Part shown: positions 32,792 to 55,528 of the stretch, piece by piece
Numbering within the stretch: position 1 is the stretch's first letter
How the letters are laid out: the number at the start of each line of letters is the position of its first letter
Source of the DNA: Marasmius tenuissimus
Lineage: Eukaryota; Basidiomycota; Agaricomycetes; Agaricales; Marasmiaceae
Length of the DNA: 64,000 nt
Direction: 5' to 3'
Assembly: GCA_029532415.1 (NCBI GenBank)
Contig: JAQOTA010000058.1
Coordinates: forward strand, 1,426,001 to 1,490,000
Made by a program: the position numbers and the translations under genes
The notes under the pieces: generated by a model
Told to the model about the DNA's origin: nothing
The model's input: only the letters and a program-made list of their open reading frames with translations
The model's database searches: none

Positions 32792-32821
32792 TACACCAGC
32801 GAACCCAGGCCACCCTGATCA
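32792..32821 (+). repeat. Left terminal inverted repeat
   Basis: Begins TACACCAGCGAACCCAGGCC. It pairs with 54615-54644 with one mismatch (position 28, T versus C). Confidence 0.9.
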
Positions 32822-33445
32822 GTGGCTGACGGGGGTCACAAGTGAGGGTTAGACTTACCGTAGATGGCCGTATACTGTAAATCTAGCATTAGAATTGAAG
32901 TTAATTCTGATCGAACGAGGATCATTTACCGTCAGTATGATTGTAGAATGGTGAGGCGTTGGCCAAGTGTCGACAGAATGGGCGAGTCTGATAAGATGAG
33001 GATCAGCGATTGATGGGATAACAGAAGGCTGAGATAATCTTATCAAATCACGATCAGCCGCTGGGCAGAACACGTGAGACTGGTAGTAGATGGGCCGTGT
33101 CTCGTCAGAACGCGTCAAAATGACAGTGTTTGCCCACAGCCTGTTCAGCTCCTTATCTAGTCTCTCCACCCAGACTACATACGACGACCTTTTTTGTTGA
33201 ATTTGAGTGTCGGTCTGTATGTAGTCTGTTGGCAGGTAGGGGTGTTTTATGCCCAAGCCATTATGCCGTAAAAATGCCTCATATGCATGGCTTTAGCATG
33301 GAGCACCGATCACATGATGATCTGACGCGTCGTCGCGTCTCTGCTCTCACTGTAACCACGACCAGCAGCTCCCATTTCCCTATATTTCGCTCACCAAACT
33401 CCATTATTTCCATACAAATAACTTATAACCTACCATTACTCTCAG
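32822..33445. other. Left subterminal region of the DNA transposon
   Basis: No gene. It should hold the promoter of the DUF6589 gene; no clear TATA box or repeated subterminal motif was found. Confidence 0.4.
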
Positions 33446-36400
33446 ATGTATCGACATCCAGCTGATAATACATCGTCAGTTGACCCCACTTCTCTTCCCG
33501 CACCTCAGAACTCTCGTCATGAAGCCCGCAAGAACTCTCGCAGGGGTCCAGGTCGCCCGCCATCTCAAAGGCTTTCACTTTTAGTTGAACCCATTCTCTC
33601 GACCCCAGCATATTCCATACCAAACTCTCAGTTCCACTCCAGTTCAGCAACGTCTCCTCCAATGAACTTATTACCTGCCGCTTCGCTTCCGAGCCCCATT
33701 ACCCCGTCAAACCTTTCTCTCATGAGTCCGGACCTCAGCACTAACCCATCGAGTTCTCACATTGCTTTTTTCAATCATTTATCTCCAGTCACTCTGATTC
33801 ATTTTGACTCAAAGCCTCGTTCCCGGAAGCCCGGACTCTCGGAACATGAGAAAATCAAGCGTGCTATAAAGTACATCGTTGATGACCTCAAATTCAAGTC
33901 TGTAGCAGATTTTATCCTATCGTACTCTCAGAATATTCCGAAGGAACACTCGAGGAACTTTGGGGCCCGACACAAGCGCTCTTTGAAGTCGTTCTTGCAG
34001 ACAGGAAAGGCAGCACAGTTGATTGAGGTCATTTATTTCCACCGCTATTCCAATCCTTCCTACAAATCCAAAGCTCGCAATGAGCGCTCCCTCGCATTCT
34101 CTCCCTCTGTTTCTCCATTCACCATCAAACATGCTCGCAGCGCCATTTCTAGCTGGGCAGTTCAACTCGTAGGACCCTGCATATACAAAGAAGTCAGAGA
34201 ACTCACAGTAGAAGACAAAGGTGCACCAGCCGAAGAGAAAGGTGTCCGTGCATGGCTAGCTGCTTCAGCAAATGAGTGAAGCCGAGCAAAAGGGGTGCAC
34301 CAAGTAACTCGGGATGATGTTCTTGGGTTCAACTTGGCGGACTGTACCCGCATCTTCAAACGACGAGCACCACTGACTTGGTACCTCACTGAATGCATGG
34401 CTGGTCCCCGTCAGAAAGGACAAGTTATTGCCCGGAAGCGACGTCCTCACTCAATTGTAGGCCTTCCCGTTTTTTCTAAACTTATTTTGATTTGATTAAC
34501 AGTTCGATATGATCTAGTGTCAATTCTCAGCCATCAGCTCATTTGTTCTTGCCCGAAATCAGTATGCGAACGGCTACTTTGCATTGATAGCTGGGGTATG
34601 GCACATAGCTTGCAGCTCGCACATTGACGTCAAATGGTTTTCTTGCCGGGCCGCTATCACTGTTCATGACACTACATCTCATAGAGCTCTGATCACCATT
34701 GTCAACGACTCATTGGCAAAGCTCCGGGAGGAGGTAGAGCTGGCACACCAGTCTGGGAGGGTTTCTCGGCGGTATGTCCTGGACAACACGCAGTGCTTTG
34801 CTGTTGTTCACGAGGGAGGGGCATCTCGCAAGAACCATCTAATATCCGGAATGGCTTGCACTGCAATCCTACTGGAAGATTGTCCCGAAAACGCCTTCAA
34901 ACTCGAACCATTCCTTTCCCGTGTCCTTGCGAACAAGCGAGCGGGCCTCACTGTTACCCAGCTATACAAGAGCATTAATTGGACTCACATTGGACTCACA
35001 CAGTCACTTCATATTCTTCAGGCCCTTGTTCATTATGTTCCAACTCTCAAACCAATGCTGAAACTCATATCAGAGAGGTTCCGGGCGTCTGATGGCTGCG
35101 GGATTCACAGAATGCGGGAGGGACAAAAGACAAGTGTTCAGCCGCTCGGGACCAATGCTGAGAAGGAGATAGAGACGGCGGGTATGATACAAGCTCTTGA
35201 TGACTTCCATACCCAGTCCGGCTCAAAGCCCGAGTTTGCTTTGTCATTCATATCCTGGGTTTCAGGCAATGGAGGCTCGGTGTTGGCTATGAAACAGGCA
35301 AAGAAGTATCTCGCTACGAACTTTGACTCTCAAGATCCGCGATCAGACTGTGAAACCCTCCATAATCTACTCCCGACGGCTGAGCTCTGGCACACTCAAG
35401 CAACCTCACTCAATACAATTGCGGAGAATCATTTCGGTTCTGCCGTCTCCCCCGATCCATCCTCTCTTTCCTGTTGTTCCACTCTCGTGAACTTCAAGTG
35501 ACCAACCAGCTTCAGAGACTGTTCTAACTACTACCCTCTCTCTCGGTGTATGACACTTATATGGGAGACACAAGTGCTCGATTGTTGGAGGTATGTACAG
35601 TCTTGAATCCAATGTCAAACAACAAGACACTGATATCTGAGCTACTTCTAGAATTGAGCTCGGTCTGGCATTGCACCAAGAAGTCATACCTCATTTCGAA
35701 CGGCTTGAGCGTGAAAATAAAGTACCATCATTCTCTGTGCTTCTTGACATTGCTGGAGTTGTGGTCAATCGTTACATTTCCCTCAAAGGCTATGAGCAAG
35801 CTTTATCTCTGAAGGCTAATGAGGCTTCACCGTTGAAAAGCCGCTTCCCTGTCAAACAACCAACCCCGTCGATCCCCCTTTCTGCTCAGACTCCCCAGGA
35901 TGCCGAAATGATAGCTGAAGACAGTGTTGATGAAACTGTAGACAGGCCAGCAGCCTCTACGACGAAGGCCACCAAATCATTCCAGGAGAAGCCAGACTTT
36001 GATGGTGACTGAATGCTCACCAACTCTATTCTATTCAAGGTTGAATTTTCATGGTGGCTAGAAGCATCGTATGCAATCTCAGAGGGCGATGTTGGCCGGG
36101 TTTTTGAGATTGTGAAGGTAAATACTGGCCTTTCCCGCATGGAAGATCCCTCATACTGACATGTAACTAGATCTGGATATTTCTTTTTGCAGGCGCAAGC
36201 AATAGTAACTACTGGGATTTAATGCTTGATCTCTGGTGCTTATTTGAGCTTGAGTGTGGTCCAGCATTGAAGACAGCGTTGTGGAATAACTGGCTTGTTG
36301 ATCTTATGGGAGAAAATGGCAACTGGAACCCGGCAGACTTGGTGCAAGAGCATTTCAATCGATGGCTTGAGGATCTTGTCGAGAAAAGTGGCGCATCATT

Positions 36401-37211
36401 TGACAATACATTCCTCTGGAACACTATCTCACCCAACGTCAATCTCTTCTTGCATCTCAAAAAGCAGTTTGAGGTTGCCTATGATCTTCGGAAGCGGTCC
36501 AACACACACACATCTCCACATCTTCGAGACGAATACCAGATGCTTCTCAGCTTTTTTTGCAGAAGAAGACATCCATACCTTCATTCCGAAATGTTCGTTC
36601 GACCATGCCGCTGTCAACTTAGTAGATTGTGAATACTCGCGCTATGATGATGGCTTACTAGATGAGATATTGGGAAAACACACAGCACAGATCAACGTAT
36701 TGCGGGCAATTGACTCCATCAAAAAGAGAACCAACATTGGGAACAATAATATGGATGTTGATGCAGCCGAGGTACAAGAGACATTACAACCACCTTCGGA
36801 CTCGGGAATCTTATCCTCACCATCCTCCACGTTGCCATCTGCCATTCCTGCCTCACCAGCAGCCTCGCCATCCCCACGGTCATCATTTCCGTCGGAATCT
36901 ATTCGCCAGACTCAGAGCCGGACATAGAAAGTGGTTCAACTGATGATCTAAATGACCATTCTGAAGTGGATGATGTAGAAGTGTACTCACGGTTGAAGCC
37001 CGGGCCTGAAATAATGCCATCCATTGATCAAGAAACAGGCTGGTTGATAGATGATTGGATGGATGATGAAGAGTTAGAGAAAGAGATGGAAGATGATGCA
37101 GAGGAGTGCAAAGAGGATGTAGATGGCAGGGCAGCAAGCAGTGAAGATGATTCAGAAAGTGAAATAGAGGACCAGCAGTCAAAGGAGAGCGACTCTGAAT
37201 ATGAATTGTAA
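33446..37211 (+). pseudogene. DUF6589-family protein, candidate transposase, broken
   Basis: The frame runs from MYRHPADNTSSVD at 33446 through a Ser/Pro-rich basic head (KNSRRGPGRPPSQR) and a helical N-domain. The family core follows: FVLARNQYANGYFALIAG, TVHDTTSHRALITIVND, then VLDNTQCFAVVHEGG. The C-terminal core SEGDVGRVFEIVKIWIFLF, NSNYWDLMLDLWCLFELE and DLVQEHFNRWLEDLVEKSG is what I recognise as DUF6589. It ends in an acidic tail at TAA 37209-37211. Introns: about 34455-34500, 35591-35651 and 36118-36170. Breaks: TGA at 34277, 35499 and 36010, each fitting a former CGA, and a frameshift in a T7 run near 36550, perhaps another near 36880. Family function is not established. As partner of a helicase inside TIRs, a transposase role is my inference. 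Confidence 0.75.
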
Positions 37212-37371
37212 CTCACCGTAGCAATATTAGAATGTTATGGAGCATTTTCCATACGCCGCATGTGTTCTGAATGACGTGTGTTGTACGCTGGCCGATAACT
37301 TGCAGCCACTTCTGCACAACTTTCAGCAGGTTTCTTGGCTTGCCGCGTCCTTTTTGCGGGAGGCTCACTTA

Positions 37372-37827
37372 TGTTGAACATGATGGATATCATGTGATAC
37401 ATATTGACGTGTTGTTTATGCGTCACACTATTTATAGAGCTACACCTCTAGGAGCACTTGCGCTCTCATGCAAGAATGTATCTACGTAGTTATTGCTTCA
37501 CAAATGACACTGTAGATATCTACTACGTATGTAGTTGCATCAAGTATGATGCTTATAGTCCAAAGTGTGAGGCACAACGGACGAAAGACTCATTAGTATT
37601 GGCTAAATACCTACTTCTGGTAGTAGTTTCATACTATTGTAATTACTCTTACATGTACAGAAACTTGTGTATAAAAGCTGATATTCCAAGGCCTTAAGCC
37701 TTAGGACAATCTACTCGATTATCACCTCTTCACAAGCATCTCAAGTCTACAAGAACACTCTGTGTATTACCCATGTGAGGTTTACTTCATTATGCCCACT
37801 GTGCACTTTAACTATGCTGGCTCAACA
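37372..37827 (+). mobile_element. Solo LTR, 456 bp
   Basis: Starts TGTTGAACATG and ends GGCTCAACA, with TG...CA ends, and is flanked by ACTTA on both sides (37367-37371 and 37828-37832). It holds a TATAAAA-like box at about 37672. Removing it with one ACTTA restores the helicase frame, which confirms both borders. It differs in length and sequence from the 312-bp copia LTRs nearby. Orientation follows the TATA box. Left by LTR-LTR recombination of an otherwise absent element. Confidence 0.9.
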
Positions 37828-39885
37828 ACTTACTGACTCGGTAATGACGGCAACAAGTTTAGCAGGCTGTGGCATTACAGGTGTTACAGTTGTGTTCAAT
37901 AGGTCTGTGAACAGCTCAGGTGAGGGGGATGATTCGATGAGAGGCTGTGATTTTGATTTTTTGGACTTGGATTTGCATTGTGAGGAAGTAATACTTCTCT
38001 GTAAGCTCAGGAGTACCTCGAGGAGACTTATGCCCTGCGAATCCTGAAATTGCCAAGAGTGTGAGGAAAGAATTGGGGAGAGCGAGGCGAGGGTAGTGAT
38101 GGAAAAGAATTTTGTAAGTAACATCTTGATGAGGGATTTTGGTAGATATGAGGCACGGAGAATATTACGATGCAAAGCACGATCCCGTTTCTCGAGCCAG
38201 ACCTTCTTCCCATCCTCGCGTAGAGCATCTTGAACGACTGTATTCTCTTTTTTTGATAGCTTGCATGTCTTCTCCATAGATTTTGAAAGGGACTGAGCAG
38301 AGTTTGGGTGGACAAAAAGTGGTAAAGATGGGTTTGACGGCTGTTCAAACATCCGTGAATCATTGGGGATTTGATAGCGCATGCAACAGAGATCACAGGG
38401 AACAGGGCAATCTGCATCAATACAATCAAGAGGGGACACCGACAATAGTGGGTTCTGGTAGATGCGGTTGATGCAGGCCACGCAACAGCCTGTTTCAGAG
38501 AGGAAATACGCCTTGGCGGGATCCATATCTGACTTCTTCTGTGGTTTCGGGAGACCATTTGTAAGGTCAAGATCAGACAGAAATGCTAAGAAATTCTCTT
38601 AATAGCATGTCTACGGATATAATGCACATGAGTATACCATCTACAATGTTCTGTGCAGCTTTGATCTGTGAGGCTGACTCCAACACAATATTCCGCGCGA
38701 AGGTTGAAGGGTCACGTCCAGCTCGCCCCCCTGTCTGTCTCCACCCGTCGACTGTTTTGATGCCCATTGCTATACTGTTGACAATTGGCTTGGCATTCAT
38801 CCCAGTGTTGAAGGCCTTTGTAGTGATCAATACTTGAAACCATGGGTCGTCGTGTATCATCTTGACCATTTTCTTATTGTACTCGGAGCTGGCAAGTGAG
38901 TTATACATTCAAATGCGGTGTAGAGGGTTTGCCATGGTATGTCTGAGAGCAGAGAAGAGATAGAGGAAGATTCGGTGCCTGTACTTGATGGTAGCAGTGT
39001 GAATTACAATCTTGCGTTGACAGTTGAGGTAAGGGAGAAGTTCAGGGAATTGAGTACCGCTGGAGGGAGAGATGAGCTTGCCGACAATAATCTTTGTATT
39101 GGGTCGTTCATTGGAACGCCTGATGAAACTGAAAGAAGGACCCTGCAAGCTGAGACTGGAGCAGACTGAAGATGTAGTGTGACCAGGTTGAAGAGTAGCC
39201 GTGATTGAGAACCTTGATACGGCAGATGGGAGACGTCCGGTGAACAGGGTGCCAATCTGTCTGAAAATTGGCTGGAAAGTGCTACCCCACTCGTTGATAA
39301 GATGTCCCTCTTCAGCGCAGCCATATATCATGTTTGACCGAAAGACGACCAAGTTCATTATCTTCCACCATTCAGGTTCACGAAGGTGCTCTGGATCGAC
39401 ACAGACAATGTTGTAGTTGCAGTTGGTAATCTTCTCGGTCATATTGATACCAGATTTTCGAGCTTTTGTGATGTTGTCATGCGTGTAGGCAAATGCTGAG
39501 AGACCCAAATAACCCATTTCCATGACCTAACAGCAGTATGAGCTCATATTTAGAATAAGAGAATATGCTACGCACTATGTTGTTAGCCAATCCTTTTGTG
39601 GGGGTAACCACAAGTCCAACGGGCTTCCTTCCAATCTCCATGTTGAATTGGGGATAACTCTTTGGATTCCGACCAATTTCACGGTGCACAAGGATAGGAA
39701 TGGCGAACAGAGCTGACTTTCCATCACCAGTTGCTGTGATACACAGGAGTTGCTGATGGTCGAGTATCTTGAGTATTGACTGGTGCTGAAAGTTTTGAAG
39801 ACCCTTAGGCCATTGAGGAACAGATTTTTGCACTATAGAGTTGAGTGTTGAAGCTCCCTGAGGGGAACAAAAGCTGATGTGAGCG

Positions 39886-40197
39886 TGTTGAATCCGTGGA
39901 CTATCATTAGATCCCGGTATATCCAAAGTCCCGGTTCATACTTCCCACCATTGTATTATGTGGGACTATTGTTCCATTTATCATTTCTACTTATGATCAT
40001 ATGTACAATTTTCATTGTCGTCCTTATATGGTATCTACTATAGTCTCTACACGTATATAAGCTCGTAGTTCTCTACCTGAATCTACAGTGTGCTTGAGCT
40101 TCTACGTCTCACCTCTATCTCTCTAAAACTCCTCTCTGGTAAGTAGTAGTGTAGCCATGTTGTAGTCCTCTGCGCTAGGCGTCATGCCGGCTCATCA
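39886..40197 (+). repeat. 5' LTR of copia copy 1
   Basis: 312 bp, from TGTTGAATCCGTGG to GCCGGCTCATCA. A TATATAAG box lies at about 40053. Confidence 0.95.
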
Positions 40198-40212
40198 GGT
40201 TATGGGCCCCGG
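40198..40212 (+). other. Primer-binding site, half-tRNA type
   Basis: GGTTATGGGCCCCGG directly follows the 5' LTR. It is complementary to the anticodon arm of initiator tRNA-Met, as in Drosophila copia, whose reverse transcription starts from a cleaved tRNA half. Copy 2 has the same sequence at 53910-53924. Confidence 0.75.
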
Positions 40213-40495
40213 TTAGCCCGACTACAATAACGAGCGCCCCTAGGCTGCTGTTAGCGACAAGCGCCCCTAGGCCGCTGTCATCGGCTAGCTAGGCTAGACC
40301 TGCATGTTGCCATCGACCTCTTAATTGAGTGTTCGATCTATGGCATGGATGTACGTCCTTCGACGACATCGGATCTCAAGGATCCAATGCTCCTCGTTGA
40401 GCATAGAGCCTTGATGGCTGCTCCCTGTGTTGATTAGACGCATGCTGATGCTGTCTTTTCCAGATCCAACACCAAACTCTAAACCTCTTACTACC
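40213..40495 (+). repeat. Leader of copia copy 1 with tandem repeats
   Basis: Two units of a 27-bp repeat containing AGCGCCCCTAGG lie at about 40232-40282. Copy 2 has one unit more. The leader could fold; no function is shown. Confidence 0.6.
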
Positions 40496-43400
40496 ATGTT
40501 CGACGTTAAGAAATTCTTCTCTGGTCGCTTTGACGGCACTGGTTTCCGCCAGACCTACCATGGTGAAATGGAAGCTGTTACTAAGGCTCAAGGCCTTTAT
40601 TGTCATCTTACTGGTGCGGCTAAGAAGCCTACGTACCCTCTGGGGGAGATTATTCCGACCATTATGGTCACTCCTTCTCCTGGTGCGGCAGCTACGCCTG
40701 CAGTTGCACCTGCTGATTCCGATGAGGAACCTGATCGGGCAGACCCCACTGAAGCCCAGATCACGGCGTATAACACCGCGCTGGAAGCATGGGAGGAGAA
40801 AGACCTCCAGCTCATGGGTATCATTCAGTTGACCTCTACGAAGGAAGTCTTTGAACCTCTCAAGGACATGGATGCTGCCAAAGCCTGGTCCACCATCATC
40901 ACCACCTATGGCAAACCCACCTTGTCTGCCATTTATGGCGACTTTGTCAAGCTGGTGTCCTTCCGGCTTACTACCAGCCATCCCCAGGCTGGCATTGCCA
41001 AGTTCAAACACTACATTGAATGTCTTGCCGAGGTCCGGGTTGAACTCCCCGAGTTGATCAAAGCCCTCCTTCTCATCGCAGCTATTCCTCCCCAATGGGA
41101 CGCCGCTTCCTCCAAGTCTCTTCATGACTTCACCAGGGATCCTGATAGCACCAGCGCCCTCACCGTTGCCGACGTTCATGAAGCAATCATGATCGAATAT
41201 GAGCGCCAAAACCCTCAGCTTGCTAACTGCCTCTCTGCGGTCAAGTGTGCTGGCAACCGTGAGCCATCCTTTGGTCAGCAGCAGCGTCCACCACAGCAAC
41301 GTCAGCAGCGTAGACAGCAGCAGCATGGCCAACAGCGTCAACCACAGCAGCAGCAGCAACGTCCTTCTTCGAACCAGAACAACGGTAAGAAGAAGAAGCA
41401 GCAGCATGGTACCCGCGGTGGCATCAACCAGCACCAGGGTCCCGGCCACGCCGGTGGTAACAACAGTGGTAATAATTGGTCGCATGGTCACTCCCATCTG
41501 GCATCCTATGCATCCGTCGTAGCTTCCCCTGCTCCTACCCGTCCTTATTCCTCGATCACTGACCGCAGGGAACGTATTGCGTTGAACGCAGTCAACAACT
41601 CCTTGCGTGCTGAGATCGCCAGCACCCCTCCTGTTCGCGCTATGGGATCACTGCCCCCAGCTCACTTCACTGGTCACTGGGACAAGTCCTGCGACAGTAC
41701 AGTCCCTCAGCCAGCTGTCAAAAAGAACCCGGCTGCCATGCAGTCCTTCACTGGCTTCAAGCCGTCACAGTCAGTATTTGATGATGTCTGTGAAGTGCGT
41801 TCTCTTGCTGACAGACTTGGTGCCCCTAAGACGGCGCGGTATCTCAAACCCTTCGAACAGATCGTCACGTCCGCCACCAATCGTTCGCTCCAGGATCGTA
41901 TCTCGAAGCCTGGTTCCTCGTCCAAGCGAGTTCTGGAGGACGATTCGGAAGATGAAGGAGCCAGACGTCCTTCTCCTACTTCTTCTAAACGCTCTCGCAG
42001 CATTGATCTTGATGAAGATGTAGAGATGGACTGGGGATCTGACGACGGTATGGAAGACATGACCTCTCTATTCGGTAATGATGTTGACAACGATATTGCT
42101 GAAGCTGCAGGGGTTGAGGACGTCCCGGATGACGTCTCTCTTGGATTGTTCCACAATGACAGGCAAGTTCCCTACCTTGACCTGCTTTCCCAAACTGATA
42201 CGACCCTACAGCGATGCTCACAATTAGTTGGTATCAGTAGTTTGCGGGGTAGTCGTAGTGATCTGGAATCACTTGTATATTATTGTCATGCAATCAGTTC
42301 CCACTTCGTGGGGTGTACACAATGTAAGGGAAAGAAAAGTGTGAACAACGCACAGGGTTGGCTCCTTGATTCTGGTCCCTCCTCTCACTTCACGAATGAT
42401 TTGAATGATTTCGCTGAATATGAATCGCTTGATGGTCCTATCATAAATACTGCGAATAAGGGCAACCCTATTCAGATCAAGGGTAAAGGCACTGTCTTCA
42501 TTAAGCATGATGTTGAAGGACATGACAGGAAACTTACTGAGCGCGTTTCGCGTCTCTATCCTGTCTATTACATACCACAATTGGACATACGTCTACTATC
42601 AATGGGAGAGTTCCTTCAAGATGGTCTTTCAATTTGTGGAAACGCGAAGAAATTGGCTTTCTACTCTTCACAGCGACAACAGTCGCTTGTTTCCTACCCT
42701 CATATGCCTGGTCAAACCATTTATTGGGTACACTCGCGGAAAGCATCTGCTGAGGTTTTAATGGCCAAGTCGGTCGTTCACAACGTCGACTACGATATTG
42801 AGCACAGACGTTTTGGGCATCCATTGGATAAAGCCCTGAATAAAGCTCGGAAACATACGCAAGGTTTCCCACTTGACCTTAAGATGCCTACTAAAAAGAC
42901 ACCTTTGTGTCGTGGTTGTGCTGAAGGCAAAATGCATGAGAAATCGTTCCCCAACTCTACTACAAGAGCTTCTAAACTGTTTGAACACATACATTCGGAT
43001 TTGAAGTCGTACCCAGCTGAATCATATCACCGGTACAAGTACTACATCTCTTTTCTCGATGACTGCACGTCCTACGTTTGGACCTCCAAACTCAAGACGA
43101 AAGATGAGGCAGTACCCGCTTTGAGGGACTTCCTTACTATGGTCAAGACACAGTTCAATGCTGTTGTCAAAACCTGGATGTCCAATGAAGGGGGAGAAAA
43201 CAAAGGAGATAAGTTCAATGCAGTACTGAAAGAGTATGGGATCCAGAGGGATCAAAGCATACCGTATACACCACAACAAAACGGTCGTGCTGAACGGTTC
43301 AACAGGACTATTCATGAGAAGGCTGAAGCTCTTCGCTTTGAAGCTTGTATGCCTCAGTCCTGGTGGGAATTTTGCCATGTGCACGCCGTCCACCTCTACA

Positions 43401-45898
43401 ATCGCACTCCTGTGCAATGTTTGAGCTGGCGAACTCTGTTCGAAATGCTTTACGGCGAAGCACCTGATGTTTCACATCTCCGAGTTATGGGTTGTGCAGC
43501 CTACGTTTTCATTCCTGAAGATTGTAGGAAGAATAAGCTTGCTCCTCGAAGCGAGTTGATGACCTTCATCGGCTACCAAGATGGGATGAAAGGCTTCCTG
43601 TTCATGCGAAGTAATAATTCCGTATTCAAAGGCAGCACTGCACTGTTTGATGAGATGCTGTATAACAAGTGTCCTGATGCCAAAACTCATGGCTTCACAC
43701 CTGTTGGTAGTGAACCTTTTACTTTGGGTGAAAATCCCAACATTCCTTTGGAAGATGAAGACTCTGATGACGACGGTTTTGATACTCCATTGCCAGATCT
43801 CAGACGTCGCTCCAAACCTTCTAAGAGATCAGAACCTCAGGTTGACAAACCTGCAGGTGGCCCTGCGCCAGGGGATATGCCACTCCCTCAATCTGGTCCT
43901 CCGACGCCTCCAGGCGAACCCGTCGTTCCACCGCCTGCACCAGCAGCAGATGGTCCACGCCGGTCTTCGAGGCAGCGGAAGGGTGTAACGCAACCTGGTA
44001 ACATATTTGGTGAACAGCGGAACCCAAATAGACCCTCAGATATTATTTGCGACTTAGAAAATAAGAATACTTGGAGAAACGTCACTGGAGATAAAGAACC
44101 TACACATCCAGTGGATCGCCCTAGCTCTTCGCGATCTAGGAAAGGCAAAGGTGGTAATAAGGGGATTCCTGGTCCACTTCTGCCTCCGCCTGCTCCAGAA
44201 CCCAGTGGAAGCACTGAGTCGCATGAGGAAGACAGCGTAGTCGAAAGACTGACCCAAGAAGGGGGAGTAGGATTCGTGATTTACCTGTTGAACAATGCCG
44301 TTCCAGTTCACGATTCGCTTCCAACGTCCGATACTCCTGATTTCTCTAACATCAGAGAGTGGACACTCCGCGATATTCTAAAGTTGCCTGTTGAGCAACA
44401 GAAGGAATGGAAGAACGCTTGCCACGAAGAACTTGAGGCACTTCGTAAGCGTAAGGTCTTCGAACTCTGTGACTTGCCTAAAGGTCGCAAAGCCATCAGA
44501 AATAGATGGGTCTTCGACGTTAAGTCGAATGGTCGCAAGAAAGCTAGACTTGTTGCCAAGGGTTTCTCTCAGGTCGAAGGTGTTGACTTTGATGAGATCT
44601 TCTCACCAGTTGTTCGTTATGAGACTGTTCGAATGATGCTTGCTCTCGCAGCTCTCAAGAACTGGTACATCACCTCTGTTGATGTTAAGAACGCCTTCCT
44701 ATACGGTGATCTTGTTGAGGAGATTTACATGGAACAACCTGAAGGCTTCAAAGTCAAGGGCCAAGAACGTAAGGTACTACGCCTGCATCGTGCATTATAT
44801 GGACTGAAGCAAGCTGCCCTTGAGTGGTGGCGAACCCTCAGCTCGTCCATGGAAGTACTAGGCTTCAAACGCCTGACTTCTGATGCTGGACTCTTCATCT
44901 GCAAAGATCCGAAGAGTGGTGAAGTTGTGTATGTGATCATCTACGTTGACGATGCACTCTTCATGGGTCCTAACAAAGCTTTTGTTGACAAGAAGAAAGC
45001 TGAGTTCATGGCTCGATGGGAATGCCGCGATATGGGCAATGCTAGCGAGTTTCTCCGCATGAGCATTCGTCGCGAAGGCAATAAGATTATGATTGACCAA
45101 AAGGAATATCTGAAGAAAGTCCTTGAACGTTTTGGGATGCAGAATGCGAAAGGTGCTCCTACGCCCTTACCTGCTGGCTATGTGCCAACTCCCAATGATG
45201 GTCCAGTCAATCCTGCCATTTGCTCCAAGTTCCAGTCTGTGATTGGGTCGCTTCTGTACATTATGCTGGGCACACGTCCTGATATTGCCTATGCAGTTAC
45301 GAAGCTATCTCAGTTCTCTTCTAATCCAACAAAGGAACACCTCGATAAAGCTCTGTATATCTGCCGCTATCTAGCTGGCACATCAGATTATTCACTCGTC
45401 TACGATGGTAACTCTGATGGAGGTCTTCTTGCGTTCACAGACTCAGATTGGGCTGCCGACCCCATCAAACGCTGTTTGATCACTGGCTACTTCTTCAAGT
45501 TAGCAGGTGGCATCTTCTCGTGGCAATCACACGCCCAGAAGACTGTAGCTCTTTCTTCCACTGAGGCTGAGTATATGGCACTGTCGGATTGCAGTCGTCA
45601 AGCTTCCTGGATAGGATCGCTACTCTCTGAACTTGGAATCGACTTGGGTCCTATTCCAATCTGCGGAGATAATCAAGGCTCTATCTTCATTGCATCTAAT
45701 CCGGTTCAAGAACGCCGAACCAAACACATCGACATTCGATATCACTATATTTGATTGTGTGTTGAAGATGGCAAAGTCGAACTGTTCTTCATCGAAGGAG
45801 TCTATAATCCCGCAGACATGTTTACGAAGAATCTCGGACATGAGAAGTTCTTACGGTTCAGAGATCACCTTGGACTTGAATTCTATTCGTCCACTTGA
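40496..45898 (+). pseudogene. gag-pol of copia copy 1, stop near the C-terminus
   Basis: Starts MFDVKKFFSGRFDGTG at 40496; an in-frame ATG further up is absent from copy 2. Order: gag (about residues 1-430) with a Gln/Arg-rich tract (QQRQQRRQQQHGQQRQPQQQ) in place of a CCHC zinc knuckle; protease near 625; zinc-binding HH-CC and integrase core (about 770-1000); reverse transcriptase with SVDVKNAFLYGDL and YVDDALFMG; RNase H with FTDSDWA and SSTEAEY. Damage compared with copy 2: DSGP instead of DSGA at the protease site (42368-42379), WMSNEGGE instead of WMSDEGGE (N at 43184, second catalytic Asp of integrase), and TGA at 45752 where copy 2 has CGA. The natural end would be TGA at 45896-45898. 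Several Arg to Cys changes fit CpG decay. Confidence 0.9.
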
Positions 45899-45927
45899 TT
45901 CGCTCAGATGCACTTTTCAGCTGCACT

Positions 45928-45940
45928 TAGCGAGGGGGTG
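45928..45940 (+). other. Polypurine tract of copia copy 1
   Basis: AGCGAGGGGGTG directly precedes the 3' LTR, the expected primer site for plus-strand DNA. Copy 2 has the same tract next to its 3' LTR (48143-48154). Confidence 0.7.
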
Positions 45941-46252
45941 TGTTGAATCCATGGACTATCATTAGATCCCGGTATATCCGAAGTCCCGGTTCATACTTCC
46001 CACCATTGTATTATGTGGGACTATTGTTCCATTTATCATTTCTACTTATGATCATATGTACAATTTTCATTGTCGTCCTTATATGGTATCTACTATAGTC
46101 TCTACATGTATATAAGCTCGTAGTTCTCTACCTGAATCTACAGTGTGCTTGAGCTTCTACGTCTCGCCTCTATCTCTCTAAAACTCCTCTCTGGTAAGTA
46201 GTAGTGTAGCCATGTTGTAGTCCTCTGCGCTAGGTGTCATGCCAGCTCATCA
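45941..46252 (+). repeat. 3' LTR of copia copy 1
   Basis: 312 bp, from TGTTGAATCCATGG to GCCAGCTCATCA. It is 306/312 identical to the 5' LTR. Confidence 0.95.
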
Positions 46253-46262
46253 GAGCGGACAT

Positions 46263-47830
46263 GATGGTGGTGGGAGGGAAGTGACGTTGATAATCTAATC
46301 TATGTGGCGGTGAAGCGTGGTATTTATTACAGCATTTGGGCTTGGGTAGTTAGACCCCTGCACGTACCACAGGACTACTCCTTATCATACACACGCAGAC
46401 TACCCACTATATCACAATAGACTTACAGGCTGCCTACTGCACAGCATGTACTGCCCACGCCAGTATGTAGGACTGAATGACAGTTAAGTCCAACCAAAGA
46501 CCTCCAAAGAAATGAGAGGACCTTATCACTGACATTGTTGAGACTGCTGTTTTCGATGTACTGTCACTACTGAATACATTGTCAGTAAACCTTGGGTAGA
46601 CCCCAGCGCCAGCGCTTGCGCTGAAATCAGTAGCGCCAGCAGGCTAGTTCACACAGCGCCAATGTGTCAGCAACCCGTACTGCTCTTGCTTCTCACCATC
46701 ATCTCAAATCAGCCGATTATTGACTGTCATCTCCATCTGGCATCTTCCATCCTGGGTCGGCTCCTATTGGACAACAACTCACAAATAAGCACTAAGCTGG
46801 GGAATTGGGATGGGAATCGGGATAGGTCATTGAACTTGAAGACCAAGTGTGTGCTCAAGTTTTCCATTTGACTCGAGCAATAATTTCATCCATTCATACA
46901 GATCACAATTTCTCTCCAACTGGGTGTCAGGCTTGAAAATTGAACAAGATCCGAGCAATCAGCAGATAGAAAACTCGACGTTGAACATCAACATTGAACA
47001 CCAAACACAGGAGCCAGCAGAGGGAACAGACCCGCTGCTATACTCTAACGCGGAGATGGACAATGGCTATAGTGTCAGTGACATATGGATCGTCACCACC
47101 ATCATTCCTCTGGCAGCTTTCACAACAAATGCATGGACCACCCTCCCTGGTATATAAACCTGACACTGTCCAGTGTTTGCCTATTCCCTTCTTTCTCCCC
47201 CCACCGTTGTCTCCCGCAATCCTACTGAGTGTAGCTCAACCCTCACAACTTTGTACATCTCCCTCGCACAACCAATGTTAACCATCAGTGAGAAAGCCAT
47301 TCTACCATCACCCGTTCACCTATTCAACACTCATCTAATTTCCAAAACCGTCAGTAGGAGCTCATTTGTAACATGAGGTCCATCCACACCCCTTCTTTCC
47401 AATCAAGTATGCCCGGCCACTGTGTCTTGGAGCTCAGGAATAGGTATGTTCACAGTGCTTTCATGGCGACGGATATTTAAGCTGACTATATGCACCTTAT
47501 GTGTCGCAGGACTGTCGAACACAACGCAACACTAGAGATCCACCCAGGCGACTGTCACTCTGAACCACCCATCCCAGCACTATGACGGCTGACAGCCTTA
47601 CATGCCTGCCGATGGTGTTTTAGAGGTAGATCATTTTTTCCGCTTGTTGTTGGGTCAGTCTACTGAAATCTTGGTTGTAGGTCATTGTGAAGGGTTGTGA
47701 TGGAATTCTACGTAGTGGGAGTACACTTCAAGCCTGTAGTGGTAGCCCTATAGTACTTGTTTGTATATTTTGTATGGTCGTAATAATACATGTCTGCTTC
47801 ATATTACTACGTGCCAAGCAGGTCTAGCTG
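46263..47830. other. Right subterminal region of the DNA transposon, part 1
   Basis: Upstream of the helicase start. A TATATAAA box at about 47150 points rightwards, but only short frames follow, so no third gene is called. A GC-rich stretch at 46,600-46,660 repeats CAGCGCCA several times. The region continues beyond copia copy 2 at 54,242. Confidence 0.4.
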
Positions 47831-48142
47831 TGATGAGCCGGCATGATGCCTAGCGCAGAGGACTACAACATAGCTACACTACTACTTACCAGAGAGGAGT
47901 TTAGAGAGATAGAGGCGAGACGTAGAAGCTCAAGCACACTGTAGATTCATGTAGAGAACTACGAGCTTATATACATGTAGAGACTATAGTGAATACCATA
48001 TAAGGACGATAATAGAAATTGTACATATGATCATAAGTAGAAATGATAAATGGAACAAATAGTCCCGCATAATATAATGGCGGGAAGTATGAACCGGGAC
48101 TTCGGATATACCGGGATCTAATTATAGTCCACGGATTCAACA
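47831..48142 (-). repeat. 3' LTR of copia copy 2
   Basis: 312 bp; 311/312 identical to the LTR at 53925-54236. Confidence 0.95.
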
Positions 48143-48184
48143 CACCCCCTCGCTAAGTGCAGCTGAAAAGCGCATCTGAGCGAA

Positions 48185-51100
48185 TCAAGTGGACGAATAG
48201 AATTCAAGTCCAAGGTGATCTCTGAACCGTAAGAACTTCTCATGTCCGAGATTCTTCGTAAACATATCTGCGGGATTATAGACTCCTTCGATGAAGAACA
48301 ATTCGACTTTGCCATCTTCAACACACGATCGAATATAATGATATTGAATATCGATGTGCTTGGTTCGGCGTTCTTGAACCGGATTAGATGCAATGAAGAT
48401 CGAGCCCTGATTGTCTCCGCAGATTGGAATAGGACCTAAGTCGATTCCAAGTTCAGAGAGTAGCGATCTTATCCAGGAAGCTTGACGACTGCAATCCGAC
48501 AGTGCCATATACTCAGCCTCAGTGGAAGAAAGAGCTACAGTCTTCTGGGCGTGTGATTGCCATGAGAAGATGCCGCCTGCTAACTTGAAGAAGTAGCCAG
48601 TAATCGAACGGCGTTTGATGGGATCGGCAGCCCAATCCGAGTCTGTGAACGCAAGAAGACCTCCATCAGAGTCACCATCGTAGACAAGTGAATAATCTGA
48701 TGTGCCAGCTAGATATCGGCAGATATAGAGTGCTTTATCGAGGTGTTCCTTTGTTGGATTAGAAGAGAACTGGGAAAGCTTCGTAACTGCATAGGCAATA
48801 TCAGGACGTGTGCCCAGCATAATGTACAGAAGCGACCCAATCACAGACTGGAATCTGGAGCGAATGGCAGGATTGACTGGACCATCGTTGGGAGTTGGCA
48901 CATAGCCAGCTGGTAAGGGCGTAGGAGCACCTTTCGCATTCTGCATCCCAAAACGTTCAAGGACTTTCTTCAGATAATCCTTTTGGTCAATCATAATCTT
49001 ATTGCCTTCGCGACGAATACTCATGCGGAGAAATTTGCTAGCATCGCCCATATCACGACATTCCCATCAAGCCATGAACTCGGCTTTCTTCTTGTCAACA
49101 AAAGCTTTGTTAGGACCCATGAAGAGTGCATCGTCAACATATATGATCACATACACAACTTCACCACTCTTCAGATCTTTGCAGATGAAGAGTCCAGCAT
49201 CAGAAGTCAGGCGTTTGAAGCCTAGTACTTCCATGGACGAGCTAAGGGTTCGCCACCACTCAAGGGCAGCTTGCTTCAGTCCATATAATGCACGACGCAG
49301 GCGTAGTACCTTACGTTCTTGGCCCTTGACTTTGAAGCCTTCAGGTTGTTCCATGTAAATCTCCTCAACAAGATCGCCATAAAGGAAGGCGTTCTTAACA
49401 TCAACAGAAGTGATGTACCAGTTCTTGAGAGCTGCAAGAGCAAGCATCATACGAACAGTTTCATAACGAACAACTGGTGAGAAGATCTCATCAAAGTCAA
49501 CACCTTCGACCTGAGAGAAACCTTTGGCAACAAGCCTCGCTTTCTTGCGACCATTCGACTTGACATCGAAGACCCATCTGTTTCTGATGGCTTTGCGACC
49601 TTTAGGCAAGTCACAGAGTTCGAAGACCTTACGCTTACGAAGTGCCTCAAGTTCTTCGTGGCAAGCAGTCTTCCATTCCTTCTGTTGCTCAACAGGCAAC
49701 TTTAGAATATCGCGGAGTGTCCACTCTCTGATGTTAGAGAAATCAGGAGTATCGGACGTTGGAAGCGAATCGTGAACTGGAACGGCATTGTTCAACAGGT
49801 AAATCACGAATCCTACTCCCCCTTCTTGGGTCAGTCTTTCGACTACGCTGTCTTCCTCATGCGACTCAGTGCTTCCACTGGGTTCTGGAGCAGGCGGAGG
49901 CAGAAGTGGACCAGGAATCCCCTTATTACCACCTTTGCCTTTCCTAGATCGCGAAGAGCTAGGGCGATCCACTGGATGTGTAGGTTCTTTATCTCCAGTG
50001 ACGTTTCTCCAAGTATTCTTATCTTCTAAGTCGCGAACAATATCTGAGGGTCTATTTGGGTTCCGCTGTTCACCAAATATGTTACCAGGTTGCGTTACAC
50101 CCTTCCGCTGCCTCGAAGACCGGCGTGGACCATCTGCTGCTGGTGCAGGCGGTGGAACGACGGGTTCGCCTGGAGGCGTCGGAGGACCAGATTGAGGGAG
50201 TGGCAAATCCCCTGGCGCAGGGCCACCTGCAGGTTTGTCAACCTGAGGTTCTGATCTCTTAGAAGGTTCGGAGCGACGTCTGAGATCTGGGAACAGAGTA
50301 TCGTCCCAATCATCATCAGAGTCTTCATCTTCCGAAGGAATGTTGGGATTTTCACCCAAAGTAAATGGTTCACTACCGACAGGTGTGAAGCCACGAGTTT
50401 TGGCATCAGGACACTTATTGTATAGCGTCTCATCGAACAGTGCAGTGCTACCTTTGAATACGGAATTATTACTTCTCATGAACAGGAAGCCTTTCATCCC
50501 ATCCTGGTAGCCGATGAAAGTCATCAACTCACTGCGAGGAGCGAGCTTATTCTTCCTACGATCTTCAGGAATGAAAACGTAGGCTGCACAACCCATAACT
50601 CGGAGATGTGAAACATCAGGTGCTTCGCCGTAAAGCATTTCGAACGGAGTTCGCCAGCTCAAACATTGCACAGGAGTGCGATTGTAGAGGTGGACGGCGT
50701 GCACATGGCAGAATTCCCACCAGGACTGAGGCATACAAGCTTCAAAGCGAAGAGCTTCAGCCTTCTCGTGAATAGTCCTGTTGAATCGTTCAGCACGACC
50801 GTTTTGTTGTGGTGTATACGGTATGCTTTGATCCCTCTGGATCCCATACTCTTTCAGTACAGCATCGAACTTTTCTCCTTTGTACTCTCCCCCTTCATCG
50901 GACATCCAGGTCTTGACAACAGCATTGAATTGCGTTTTGACCATAGTAAGGAAGTCCCTCAAAGCGGGTACTGCCTCGTCTTTCGTCTTGAGCTTGGAGG
51001 TCCAAACGTAGGACGTGCAGTCATCAAGAAAAGAGATGTAGTATTTGTACCGGTGATACGATTCAGCCGGGTACGACTTCAAATCCGAATGTATGCGTTC

Positions 51101-53596
51101 AAACGGTTTAGAAGCTCTCGTTGTAGAGTTAGGGAACGATTTTTCATGCATCTTGCCTTCAGCACAACCACGACACAGAGGTGTCTTCTTAGTAGGCATC
51201 TTAAGGTCAAGTGGGAAACCTTGCGTATGTTTCCGAGCTTTATTCAGGGCTTTATCCGATGGATGCCCAAAGCGTCTGTGCTCAATATCGTAGTCGACGT
51301 TATAAACGACCGACTTGGCCATTAAAACCTCAGCAGATGCTTTCCGCGAGTGTACCCAATAAATGGTTTGACCAGGCATATGAGGGTAGGAAACAAGCGA
51401 CTGTCGTCGCTGTGATGAGTAGAAGGCTAACTTCTTCGCGTTTCCACGAATTGATAGACCATCTTGAAGGAACTCTCCCATTGATAGTAGACGTATGTCC
51501 AATTGAGGTATGTAATAGACAGGGTAGAGACGCGAAACACGCTCTGTAAGTTTCCCGTCATGTCCTTCAACGTTATGCTTAATGAAGACTGTGCCTTTAC
51601 CCTTGATCTGTATAGGGTTGCCCTTATTCGCAGTATTTACGATAGGACCATCAAGCGATTCATATTCAGCAAAGTCATTCATATCATTCGTGAAATGAGA
51701 GGAGGCACCAGAATCAAGGAGCCAACCCTGTGCATTGTTCACACTTTTCTTTCCCTTACATTGAGTACACCCCACGAAGTGGGAACTGATTGCATGACAA
51801 TATGTTACAAGTGATTCCAGATCACTACTACTACCGCGCGAACTACTGATACCAACTAATTGGGAGCAGCGCTGTAGGTTTGCATCAGTTTGGGAAAGCA
51901 GGTCAAGATATGGAACTTGCCTGTCATCATGGAACGATCCAAGAGAGACGTCATCCGGGACGTCCTCAACCCCTGCAGCTTCAGCAATATCGTTGTCAAC
52001 ATCATTACCGAATAGAGAGGTCATGTCTTCCATACCGTCGTCAGATCCCCAGTCCATCTCTACATCTTCATCAGGATCAGCGCTACGAGAGCGTTTAGAA
52101 GAAGTAGAAGAAGGAGATCCGGCTCCCTCATATCCCTCATCATCCTCCAAAAGACGCTTGGACGAGGACGCACGTGGTTGTTCAATGCGGTCCTGGAGCG
52201 AACGATTGGCGGCGGACGTGACGATCTGTTCGAAGGGTTTGAGATACCACACCGTCTTAGGGGCACCAAGTCTGTCAGCAAGGGAACGTGCTCCACGGAC
52301 ATCATCAAATACTGACTGAGATGGCTTGAAGCCAGTGAAGGACTGCATAGCAGCCGGGTTCTTCTTAACAGCTGGCTGAGGGACAGTACTGTCACAGGAC
52401 TTGTCCCAGTGACCGGTGAAGTGAGCTGGGGGCGGTGATTCCATAGCGCGAACAGGAGGGGCGCTGGCGATCTCAGCGCGCAAGGAGTTGTTGACCGCGT
52501 TCAACGCGATACGTTCCCTGCGATCGGTGATCGAGGAGTAAGGACGGATAGGAGTGGGGGAAGCTACGACGGATGCATAGGATGCCAGATGGGAGTGACC
52601 ATGCGACCGGTTGTTACCACCGTTGTTACCGCCGGCGTTGCCGGGACCCTGATGCTGGTTGATACCACCGCGGGTACCACGCTGCTGCTGCTTCTTCTTC
52701 TTACCGTTGTTCTGGTTCGAAGAAGAACGTTGCTGCTGCTGCTGCTGTGGTTGACGCTGCTGGCCACGCTGCTGCTGTCCGCGCTGCTGACGTTGCTGCG
52801 GCGGACGCTGCTGCTGACCAAAAGAAGGTTCGCGGTTACCAGCACGCTTGACTGCAGAGAGGCGGTTGGCAAGCTGAGGGTTCTGACGTTCATATTCAAC
52901 CATGATGGCTTCATGTACGTCACCAACGGTGAGGGCAGTGTCACTATCAGGATCTCTTGAGAAATCATGAAGAGATTTTGAGGAAGCGGCGTCCCATTCG
53001 GGAGGAATAGCTGCGATGAGAAGGAGGGCTTTGATCAACTCGGGGAGTTCAACCCCGACCTCGGCAAGACGTTCAATGTAGTGTTTGAACTTGGCGATGC
53101 CAGCCTGGGGATGGCTGGTAGTAAGCCGGAAGGACACCAGTTTAACGAAGTCGCCATAAATGGCAGACAAGGTTGGTTCGCCATAGGTGGTGACAATGGT
53201 GGACCAGGCTTTGGCAGCGTCCATGTCCTTGAGAGGTTCAAAGACTTCCTTCGTAGAGGTCAACTGAATGATACCCATCAGCTGGAGGTCTTTCTCTTCC
53301 CATGCTTCCAGCGCGGTATTATATGCCGTAATCTGGGCATCGGTGGGAGGGTGACAATCAGGTTCGTCGTCACTGTCAGTTCCAGCTGCAGGCTGAGCAG
53401 TTCCACCAGGGGGAGTAGTGACCGTAATGGTCGGAACAATAGGTTCCCCCAGCGGGTACGTAGGCTTCTTAGCCGCACCAGTAAGGTGACGATAAAGGCC
53501 TTGAGCCTTGGTTACAGCTTCCATTTCGCCGTTATAGGTCTGGCGGAATCCAGTGCCGTCGAAGCGACCGGAGAAGAATTTCTTAACGTCGAACAT
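48185..53596 (-). pseudogene. gag-pol of copia copy 2 with one in-frame stop
   Basis: One frame of 1,803 codons from the ATG at 53596, interrupted by TGA at 49067-49069 in the thumb region of reverse transcriptase; copy 1 has CGA there. Everything else looks functional: protease DSGASSHF (about residue 628), integrase Asp at HSDLKSY (about 837), second Asp in WMSDEGGEYKGE (about 898), Glu in QQNGRAERFNRT (about 935), YVDDALFMG (about 1486). After the stop come the RNase H motifs FTDSDWA, SSTEAEYMALSD and TKHIDIQYHYIR. Gag again has a Gln/Arg-rich tract and a Gly/Asn/His-rich tract but no CCHC knuckle. A single readthrough or repair would leave a complete polyprotein, so mobility in the recent past is likely. 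Confidence 0.92.
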
Positions 53597-53796
53597 GGTA
53601 GTAAGATGTTTAGAGGTTTGGTGTTGGATCTAGAAAAGACAGCATCAGCATGCGTCTAATCAACACAGGGAACAGCCATCAAGGCGCTATGCTCTACGAG
53701 GAGCATTGGATCCTTGAGATCCGATGTCGTCGAAGGACGTACATCAATGCCATAGATCGAGCACTCAATTAAGAGGTCGATGGCAACATGCAGGTC

Positions 53797-53895
53797 TAGC
53801 CTGGCTAGCCGATGACAGCAGCCTAGGGGCGCTTGTCGCTGACAGCAGCCTAGGGGCGCTTGTCGCTGACAGCAGCCATTAAAGGCGCTCGTCAT
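53797..53895 (-). repeat. Leader tandem repeat of copia copy 2
   Basis: Three units, the last partial, of a 27-bp repeat containing GACAGCAGCCTAGGGGCGCT (+ strand view), one more than in copy 1. The tract lies between the primer-binding site and gag. Confidence 0.7.
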
Positions 53896-53924
53896 TGTAG
53901 TCGGGCTAACCGGGGCCCATAACC

Positions 53925-54236
53925 TGATGAGCCGGCATGACGCCTAGCGCAGAGGACTACAACATAGCTACACTACTACTTACCAGAGAGGAGTTTAGAG
54001 AGATAGAGGCGAGACGTAGAAGCTCAAGCACACTGTAGATTCATGTAGAGAACTACGAGCTTATATACATGTAGAGACTATAGTGAATACCATATAAGGA
54101 CGATAATAGAAATTGTACATATGATCATAAGTAGAAATGATAAATGGAACAAATAGTCCCGCATAATATAATGGCGGGAAGTATGAACCGGGACTTCGGA
54201 TATACCGGGATCTAATTATAGTCCACGGATTCAACA
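53925..54236 (-). repeat. 5' LTR of copia copy 2
   Basis: 312 bp, TG...CA in element orientation; the primer-binding site lies at 53910-53924. Confidence 0.95.
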
Positions 54237-54241
54237 AGCTG

Positions 54242-54614
54242 TAGCTATAGGGTAAGAGTAACAGCTCAATAATAGCCTGCATGTATCCGACAATGACTGC
54301 CAGCCCGACCATGCCTTCTAATCGTCTGTAGATTTGACGGCCTCTGATCATGCCAATGAGTCTGGCGGAGTTTGATCATCCCTGTCATTCTGACACGTCT
54401 TGCCATTCTATCTCAGCGTGGCAGAACTTGGTCGGTAAGTGGTCATCTTATTTCATTTGGAGTGTTACTGATCATTCTTGGGCATACTTATAGCTATGGT
54501 AAGTATACGAAATTATTATGCTACCTGAACAGAAAAGCCATCACCCATCAGCCAGTGCCCAGAGAGCTCCAGGGTGAAGAGTCCTGGTCGTGACTGGCGG
54601 GGCTCATCAACTAG
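54242..54614. other. Right subterminal region of the DNA transposon, part 2
   Basis: Continuation of 46,263-47,830 beyond copia copy 2. No gene or clear repeat seen. Confidence 0.4.
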
Positions 54615-54644
54615 TGGTCAGGGTGGCCTGGGTTCGCTGGTGTA
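54615..54644 (-). repeat. Right terminal inverted repeat
   Basis: Reads TGGTCAGGGTGGCCTGGGTT at its inner end; reverse complement of 32792-32821 with one mismatch. Confidence 0.9.
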
Positions 54645-55142: not shown

Positions 55143-55185
55143 CTCACCTACATGCCGGCAATGCCGTTCGCAATATTTCACCTTA

Positions 55186-55528
55186 CAGCCGTTTGCATAT
55201 CCCTAGAATAATTTCGCACGACCCCACATACTTGATCTGTTTACTTCCAAACAACTCCACGTGAGCAAACTCAATTGGATGACGCGTCGAGACGCGTCGC
55301 GACTCGCGGCTCATACTGGTTAAGCACTCTCAATCTGACAAGGAACCACGCCGTTGACCAGGTTTGTTTCTTCATCTCGTTCTGAAAGCTTCACCGAGCG
55401 AATAATGGATGAAGGCCACTAGGATTCTACTCGAGAACTGAGGTTCTGGCCATGTGCGATTGTTTGGCCATAAACAGATCAACTGTGTGGAGTCGTGCGA
55501 AATTATTCTAGGGATATGCAAACGGCTG
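55186..55528. mobile_element. MITE of 343 bp, TA-flanked
   Basis: Arms begin CAGCCGTTTGCATATCCCTA and are identical for about 38 bp, then similar for another 40 bp. TA lies on both sides (55184-55185 and 55529-55530). TA target and CAG terminus fit a non-autonomous Tc1/mariner-type element, but the superfamily is not proven. It has no coding capacity. Confidence 0.75.

What the first reader, a model, noticed from the sequence alone, without database searches (positions are those of the whole stretch)
32792..54644. A TIR-bounded DNA transposon carrying a DUF6589 gene and a RecQ-like helicase tail to tail
The sequence shows 30-bp inverted repeats (29/30) 21.8 kb apart. Between them lie only two old genes, whose stops are 23 bp apart, plus three younger LTR insertions with perfect TSDs. 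Removing these gives a compact element of about 8.6 kb. DUF6589 is an uncharacterised family common in mushrooms. Its position suggests it is a transposase whose partner is a RecQ-like helicase. This may be a new family, or a member of the helicase-bearing Academ lineage (AcademH) that I recall.
Basis: partly seen in the sequence, partly recalled or inferred. Interest (0 to 1): 0.92.

Follow-up and report, generated by a model that had tools for sequence, protein, structure and literature searches.

The report
Helicase transposon nested inside Plavaka transposon
The two genes sit in a mobile DNA element of their own (probably an AcademH, with a cut-and-paste enzyme and a helicase) that jumped into an older, unrelated transposon whose ends had been mistaken for its own, and its hairpin-shaped ends seem to be left behind at old insertion sites.

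Summary
The 30-bp inverted repeats and the three LTR insertions are real, but the repeats are not the ends of the DUF6589/RecQ element. They belong to a Plavaka-type transposon: 17 of 17 paired copies in this genome (window included) have CAC..GTG ends and exact 2-bp target duplications, the one 9.9-kb copy scanned encodes a Plavaka transposase, and no listed DUF6589 match falls in a copy other than the window's. DUF6589 and the helicase form a second transposon nested inside it: 33158-46377, ends TAGTC..GACTA, perfect 9-bp duplication CTCCTTATC. The joined flanks align without gaps across the junction to four of six other Plavaka copies. Five further DUF6589/helicase elements have 9-bp duplications; AcademH is reported to make 9 or 10 bp. 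33 of 36 helicase loci lie within 10 kb of DUF6589. A DUF6589 protein of another lineage models as a DDE transposase. The window copy looks dead. Unexpected: the elements end in ~65-bp hairpin units that also occur alone between perfect 9-bp duplications (5 of 21 solo-type loci).

The parts
32794..54642 (.). Outer element: non-autonomous Plavaka/CMC-type transposon, CACC..GGTG ends, 2-bp TSD TA (32792-32793 and 54643-54644); about 2.2 kb without its insertions
   Evidence: relatives of 2.0-2.8 kb colinear at 32794-33147, 46609-47832, 54272-54642
33149..33157 (+). 9-bp target site duplication CTCCTTATC, left copy (nested element)
33158..46377 (.). Nested DUF6589/RecQ (AcademH-like) element, ends TAGTCTCTCC..AGGACTA; about 6.4 kb without its two LTR insertions
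   Evidence: (5 other genomic matches all begin at query base 1)
33158..33221 (+). Terminal hairpin unit 'U' (its arms: CAGACTACATAC 33171-33182 / GTATGTAGTCTG 33217-33228)
   Evidence: z -4.9
33222..33266 (+). Inner TIR copy TAGTCTGTTGGCAGG..GGGGT..CCCAAGCC, imperfectly matching the helicase-side end
   Evidence: by eye
33422..36632 (+). DUF6589 (PF20231) gene, DDE transposase candidate; Pfam matches in 34518-35501 and 36171-36632; the upstream ORF 33422-34279 has no Pfam match and is taken as its N-terminal part by likeness to L044. In this copy the presumed triad reads D/N/E; stops in matched stretches (some may be intronic)
37372..37827 (.). Solo LTR, TSD ACTTA
37828..39885 (-). RecQ-like superfamily 2 helicase gene, stops in the matched stretch; 5' end interrupted by a Copia element
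   Evidence: 54% identical to the L044 copy
39886..46252 (+). Copia LTR retrotransposon, TSD GAGCG, inserted in the nested element
46333..46377 (-). Helicase-side end of the nested element (TAGTCCTGTGGTACG.. read inwards), without the hairpin unit
   Evidence: z -0.2
46378..46386 (+). 9-bp target site duplication CTCCTTATC, right copy
47831..54236 (-). Copia LTR retrotransposon, TSD AGCTG, inserted in the outer Plavaka element, outside the nested one

Best explanation
Two DNA transposons, one inside the other. The outer one (32794-54642) is a non-autonomous Plavaka/CMC-type element, presumably mobilised by Plavaka transposases encoded elsewhere in the genome. A DUF6589 + RecQ-helicase transposon of AcademH type then inserted at 33158-46377, making a 9-bp duplication. 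Shown: borders, both TSD lengths, paralogous empty site, nesting, recurrent pairing of the two genes. Inferred: the DUF6589 protein is a DDE transposase that cuts at TAG..CTA ends and joins to target phosphates staggered by 9 bp; the RecQ-like helicase opens DNA at the hairpin-forming ends or during repair of the gap. Later a Copia element and a solo LTR broke it up, and the window copy is very probably dead. Also inferred: an end can be cut at an inner site (second hairpin arm), which leaves the outer ~65-bp unit behind as a footprint between the two target copies and yields shorter elements that can still move.
Confidence: 0.87

Rival explanations
1. One element: the 30-bp repeats are the ends of a DUF6589/RecQ transposon.
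For: 29 of 30 inverted match around both genes; TA duplication at the outer ends.
Against: The same ends bound 16 other paired copies without a listed DUF6589 match, one of them shown to hold a Plavaka transposase; the genes have their own 9-bp TSD and borders, with empty-site relatives; the five other DUF6589/RecQ elements with both ends found have TAG..CTA ends, not CACC..GGTG.
Confidence: 0.02
2. The DUF6589/RecQ element is a Kolobok (KolobokH) rather than an Academ: KolobokH also carries a RecQ helicase and is reported only from fungi (PMC9587614, passages).
For: RecQ-like helicase gene with a DDE-like transposase in a fungus.
Against: Kolobok duplicates TTAA (recalled); the six elements here duplicate 9 varied bases. 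In KolobokH the helicase is said to lie downstream of the transposase domain; here it is a separate gene on the other strand.
Confidence: 0.05
3. A new superfamily with 9-bp TSDs and a RecQ helicase that only resembles AcademH.
For: No Academ protein could be compared; library searches for DUF6589 and PF20231 found no paper on transposons; hairpin ends and solo ends are not in the passages read about AcademH.
Against: TSD length, helicase and fungal host fit what is reported for AcademH (PMC10045372 and PMC10799480 passages).
Confidence: 0.08
4. Solo hairpin units are tiny independent non-autonomous transposons (56-70 bp) rather than excision remnants.
For: Perfect 9-bp TSDs on both sides in 5 of 21 solo-type loci.
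Against: Their inner ends vary by many bases between loci while the outer end is nearly constant; an element under 70 bp would hardly pair its ends; elements lacking this unit on one side exist (window, L044, C19).
Confidence: 0.25

Closest known systems
AcademH DNA transposons (Kojima 2020; paper not held, known here through passages of PMC10045372, PMC8290104, PMC10799480)
   Same: Helicase-encoding DNA transposon, reported from fungi, 9-bp target duplication (9 or 10 bp reported), separate transposase gene whose modelled relative has a DDE-like fold
   Different: Transposase not compared with Academ references; terminal hairpin units, one-sided loss of a unit and solo units are not mentioned in the passages read; both convergent and divergent gene orders seen here
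Plavaka (PlavakaA/PlavakaB; PMC12730594 passages)
   Same: PF18759 transposase in the 9.9-kb copy scanned; 2-bp target duplications (outer element)
   Different: Ends CACC..GGTG, neither TGT..ACA (PlavakaA) nor CATCA..TGATG (PlavakaB)
KolobokH (PMC9587614 passages)
   Same: RecQ helicase carried by a fungal DDE transposon
   Different: TSD 9 bp and variable here, not TTAA (recalled); helicase is a separate gene
hAT transposases (Hermes) and P element
   Different: About 10% identity; 9-bp rather than 8-bp TSD (8 bp for hAT as in PMC12730594); helicase partner

Membership tests
AcademH (nested element) | Encodes a helicase gene | tested here: met
   (RecQ-family chains RECQ5, BLM, RECQ1, WRN are the PDB sequence matches of the L044 helicase)
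AcademH (nested element) | 9- or 10-bp target site duplication | tested here: met
   9 bp, perfect, at 6 of 6 elements with both ends found, in L044 only if its outer solo unit is counted in; length reported in PMC10045372
AcademH (nested element) | Transposase homologous to Academ transposases | not testable with these tools
   No Academ reference protein or Repbase at hand; defining paper not held
AcademH (nested element) | DDE/D RNase-H-like transposase | tested here: met
   Model of P0001, another lineage of DUF6589; the window lineage only by profile match to it, its own model failed
AcademX | 3- or 4-bp TSD | tested here: not met
   9 bp
KolobokH | TTAA target duplication (recalled) | tested here: not met
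   Six different 9-bp duplications
Plavaka (outer element) | PF18759 Plavaka transposase in the longer copies | tested here: met
   L023:5416-6621, E 3.9e-14; one of five copies of 9.75-9.93 kb was scanned
Plavaka (outer element) | 2- or 3-bp TSD | tested here: met
   2 bp exact in 17 of 17
PlavakaA / PlavakaB (outer element) | Ends TGT..ACA or CATCA..TGATG | tested here: not met
   Ends CAC..GTG, mostly CACCAG..CTGGTG, so not filed in either lineage

The most novel reading that the evidence does not exclude
DUF6589 is the catalytic subunit of a helicase-partnered transposon whose ends are alternative: an end can be cut at the outer TAGTC or at an inner copy in the second arm of a terminal hairpin. 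Inner cutting strands a ~65-bp hairpin at the donor site, flanked by both 9-bp target copies, as a solo end, and the shortened element goes on moving. The RecQ helicase would be needed because the ends fold. This would be a recognisable footprint, by which old excisions can be counted even where no full element remains.
Probability: 0.35. Interest if true: 0.75.

Novelty: new member of a known kind. Interest (0 to 1): 0.5.

Why it matters
It gives a testable function (DDE transposase) to a Pfam family of unknown function that occurs in many mushrooms and at 43 loci of this genome. It corrects the borders of a nested structure that would otherwise enter repeat libraries as a false new superfamily. 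It also supplies markers (9-bp TSDs, hairpin ends, solo ends) with which the role of a helicase in cut-and-paste transposition could be examined.

Tried and rejected
Rejected: 30-bp repeats as ends of the DUF6589 element. AcademX and KolobokH by TSD length. Passenger genes captured by Plavaka: rejected because they have their own TSD and ends and recur elsewhere between other ends.

Led nowhere: the AcademH paper (not held) and Muszewska 2017; literature on DUF6589 (none; one unrelated paper). Pattern TAGTCTCKCN{3,6}CAG gave 75 sites against 76 for its reversed control, so the pattern alone shows nothing; I chose 20 family-like or multi-copy hits from it by eye. 15 of 21 solo-type loci show no repeat of 8/9 or better. 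Second end of L043 not found. The model of the window lineage was poor and not searched. In one search the empty-site BLAST gave nothing (unsupported gap settings, repeated), and the MAFFT part aligned only one sequence and was not used. Not searched: viral folds, PHROGs, NCBIfam, PADLOC, Rfam. No collection of fungal genomes was open to DNA search.

Rows dropped before counts: from 39 rows, 19 repeats of loci already and 17 short matches (23-33 residues, the last part of the query, not near-complete helicases) were left out. L066 and L067 were fetched but not given; of its 27 loci 6 were excluded from the solo count because, by eye, the unit runs on into a longer element end. The right end of the C19 element was picked among TAGTC sites with the help of the 9-bp repeat itself. 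71 of 120 listed relatives were used for A1.
Full report
What was checked first. The 30-bp inverted repeats exist (32792-32829 / 54607-54644). DUF6589 (PF20231) and a DEAD helicase lie between them on opposite strands, with three LTR insertions with perfect 5-bp duplications. The genome is 71 Mb in 70 contigs. It is Marasmius tenuissimus to judge by protein P0001, whose contig length, 6,882,755, equals that of contig C7.

Whose ends are they? Probing the genome with the left and right ends gave 18 and 17 matches. They make up 17 paired elements including the window's (the partner of the C33 copy was found in its fetched locus); two ends, on C10 and C37, stayed unpaired. Each of the 17 has an exact 2-bp duplication (TA, TC, AT, CA, CT, CC, GT, TT, GA, AG) and no longer one. 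Five copies are 9.75-9.93 kb, one 11.6 kb. The one scanned (L023) encodes a Plavaka transposase, PF18759, E 3.9e-14. The compared copies of 2.0-2.8 kb are colinear with the window at about 32794-33147, 46609-47832 and 54272-54642. Of 98 DUF6589 matches in the genome none falls in these copies except in the window. So the outer element is a non-autonomous relative of Plavaka; its CACC..GGTG ends fit neither PlavakaA nor PlavakaB as described in PMC12730594 (passages read).

The nested element. Where the window departs from its Plavaka relatives there is a perfect 9-bp repeat, CTCCTTATC, at 33149-33157 and 46378-46386, with TAGTCTCTCC.. inside one and ..AGGACTA inside the other. Joining the flanks with one copy of the repeat gives a sequence that aligns without gaps across the junction to four of six other Plavaka copies (138, 137, 138 and 137 nt at 86, 80, 79 and 75%); L010 aligned only with gaps and L016 only beyond the junction. 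The first 263 bp of the nested element match five other places, all starting at base 1, two of them beside DUF6589 genes. By arithmetic the outer element is 2,209 bp and the nested one 6,387 bp without insertions, in line with 2.0-2.8 kb for Plavaka relatives and 5.9-7.0 kb for the DUF6589/RecQ elements L044, L051, L068 and L069.

Others of its kind. Both ends and a perfect 9-bp duplication were found for six of six elements where I had both ends: window CTCCTTATC; C7:4950418-4956285 GCGGACATG; C7:5931079-5937524 TGCCTGCTG (CAGCAGGCA on the other strand; counted to its outer solo unit, to the inner border it is 8 bp); C19:2000711 to about 2017513 TTGCAAATG; C11:640509-647543 TCTCGCCAG; C30:1200662-1207696 CCTCAATCA (in one search the script missed the last two because the left flanks were too short, they are read). 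The C11 and C30 copies are 99.4% identical over 7.0 kb, at different sites with different duplications, hence fairly recent movement. 33 of 36 loci matching the helicases lie within 10 kb of a DUF6589 locus, 25 convergent and 8 divergent; 10 of 43 DUF6589 loci had no listed helicase (17 short tail matches were left out).

AcademH or not. PMC10045372 (passages) says AcademH makes 9- or 10-bp and AcademX 3- or 4-bp duplications and that the difference seems related to helicase and nuclease. PMC8290104 (passages) reports putative non-autonomous Academ insertions in Marasmius oreades; PMC10799480 (passages) says AcademH is known as low-copy elements in Basidiomycota. TSD length, helicase and fungal host are met; homology of the transposase to Academ could not be tested, as the defining paper (Kojima 2020) and Repbase were not available. 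KolobokH also carries RecQ (PMC9587614, passages), but its TTAA target (recalled) is not met. No paper in the library mentions DUF6589, and the one holding 'PF20231' is unrelated.

Hairpin ends and solo ends. The ends carry a unit of about 65 bp (longer in the C19 family) that folds on itself: 8 of 8 unit-bearing ends fold better than shuffles (z -1.7 to -6.2, seven at -3.1 or lower), 3 of 3 ends without the unit do not stand out (z -0.2, -1.6, 0.7); the shuffle was simple. The arms differ in sequence between families while pairing is kept. Three elements (window, L044, C19) have the unit on one side only; the other side starts at the place of the second arm (TAGTC there in window and L044, AAGTC in C19), yet the duplication flanks it. 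The unit also occurs alone: of 21 solo-type loci five have a perfect 9-bp repeat on both sides (L045, L047, L049, L060, L077) and one 8 of 9 (L062); 15 have neither. Among control anchors 0 of 1,995 are perfect and 16 of 1,995 reach 8 or more. L044 shows solo unit, duplicate copy, then a complete element in a row. The inner ends of the solo units vary, which fits a break at the inner site followed by trimming and end joining; stalled gap repair at the hairpin would explain them too. I know of no report of this, but the AcademH paper was not available; the mechanism is inferred.

Noticed in passing
L045, L047, L049, L060, L062, L077 (C37:998166, C7:1771305, C7:1699056, C28:3411000, C28:4042044, C35:610592): 56-70-bp terminal hairpin units standing alone between perfect (five) or 8-of-9 (L062) 9-bp repeats. 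For the L045/L047 family one search gave six matches, of which the five besides the window are solo-type.
   Followed up: partly
L044 7055-7125 (C7:5937454-5937524): Tandem arrangement: 9-bp target copy, solo unit, 8-bp target copy, then the complete element; origin unclear (re-insertion at its own footprint or template switching).
   Followed up: partly
L018 (C33:101466-111465) against window 39885-45604: A Plavaka copy sits inside a Copia element of the same family as the window's; the two aligned parts overlap by 3 bp in the window's uninterrupted copy, in keeping with the 2-bp duplication.
   Followed up: partly
window 39886-46252 and 47831-54236: Two Copia elements of one family in opposite orientation, 4.1-kb arms 95% complementary, 2 kb apart.
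   Followed up: no
L068 and L069 (C11:640509-647543, C30:1200662-1207696): A divergent-layout DUF6589/helicase family with two 99.4% identical 7-kb copies and different 9-bp TSDs: candidate for recent or current activity.
   Followed up: partly
window 55183-55263 and 55451-55531: Inverted repeat of 81 nt, 88% complementary, 187 nt apart, just right of the outer element; nature unknown.
   Followed up: no
C7:5349510, C19:2420426, C23:1458624, C29:139724, C37:215740: Five sites with TAGTCTCTCGTAGACAG; the one read (L067, C23) continues like other TAGTC ends and lies 8.6 kb from the helicase/DUF6589 pair at C23:1467227, perhaps a further family.
   Followed up: no
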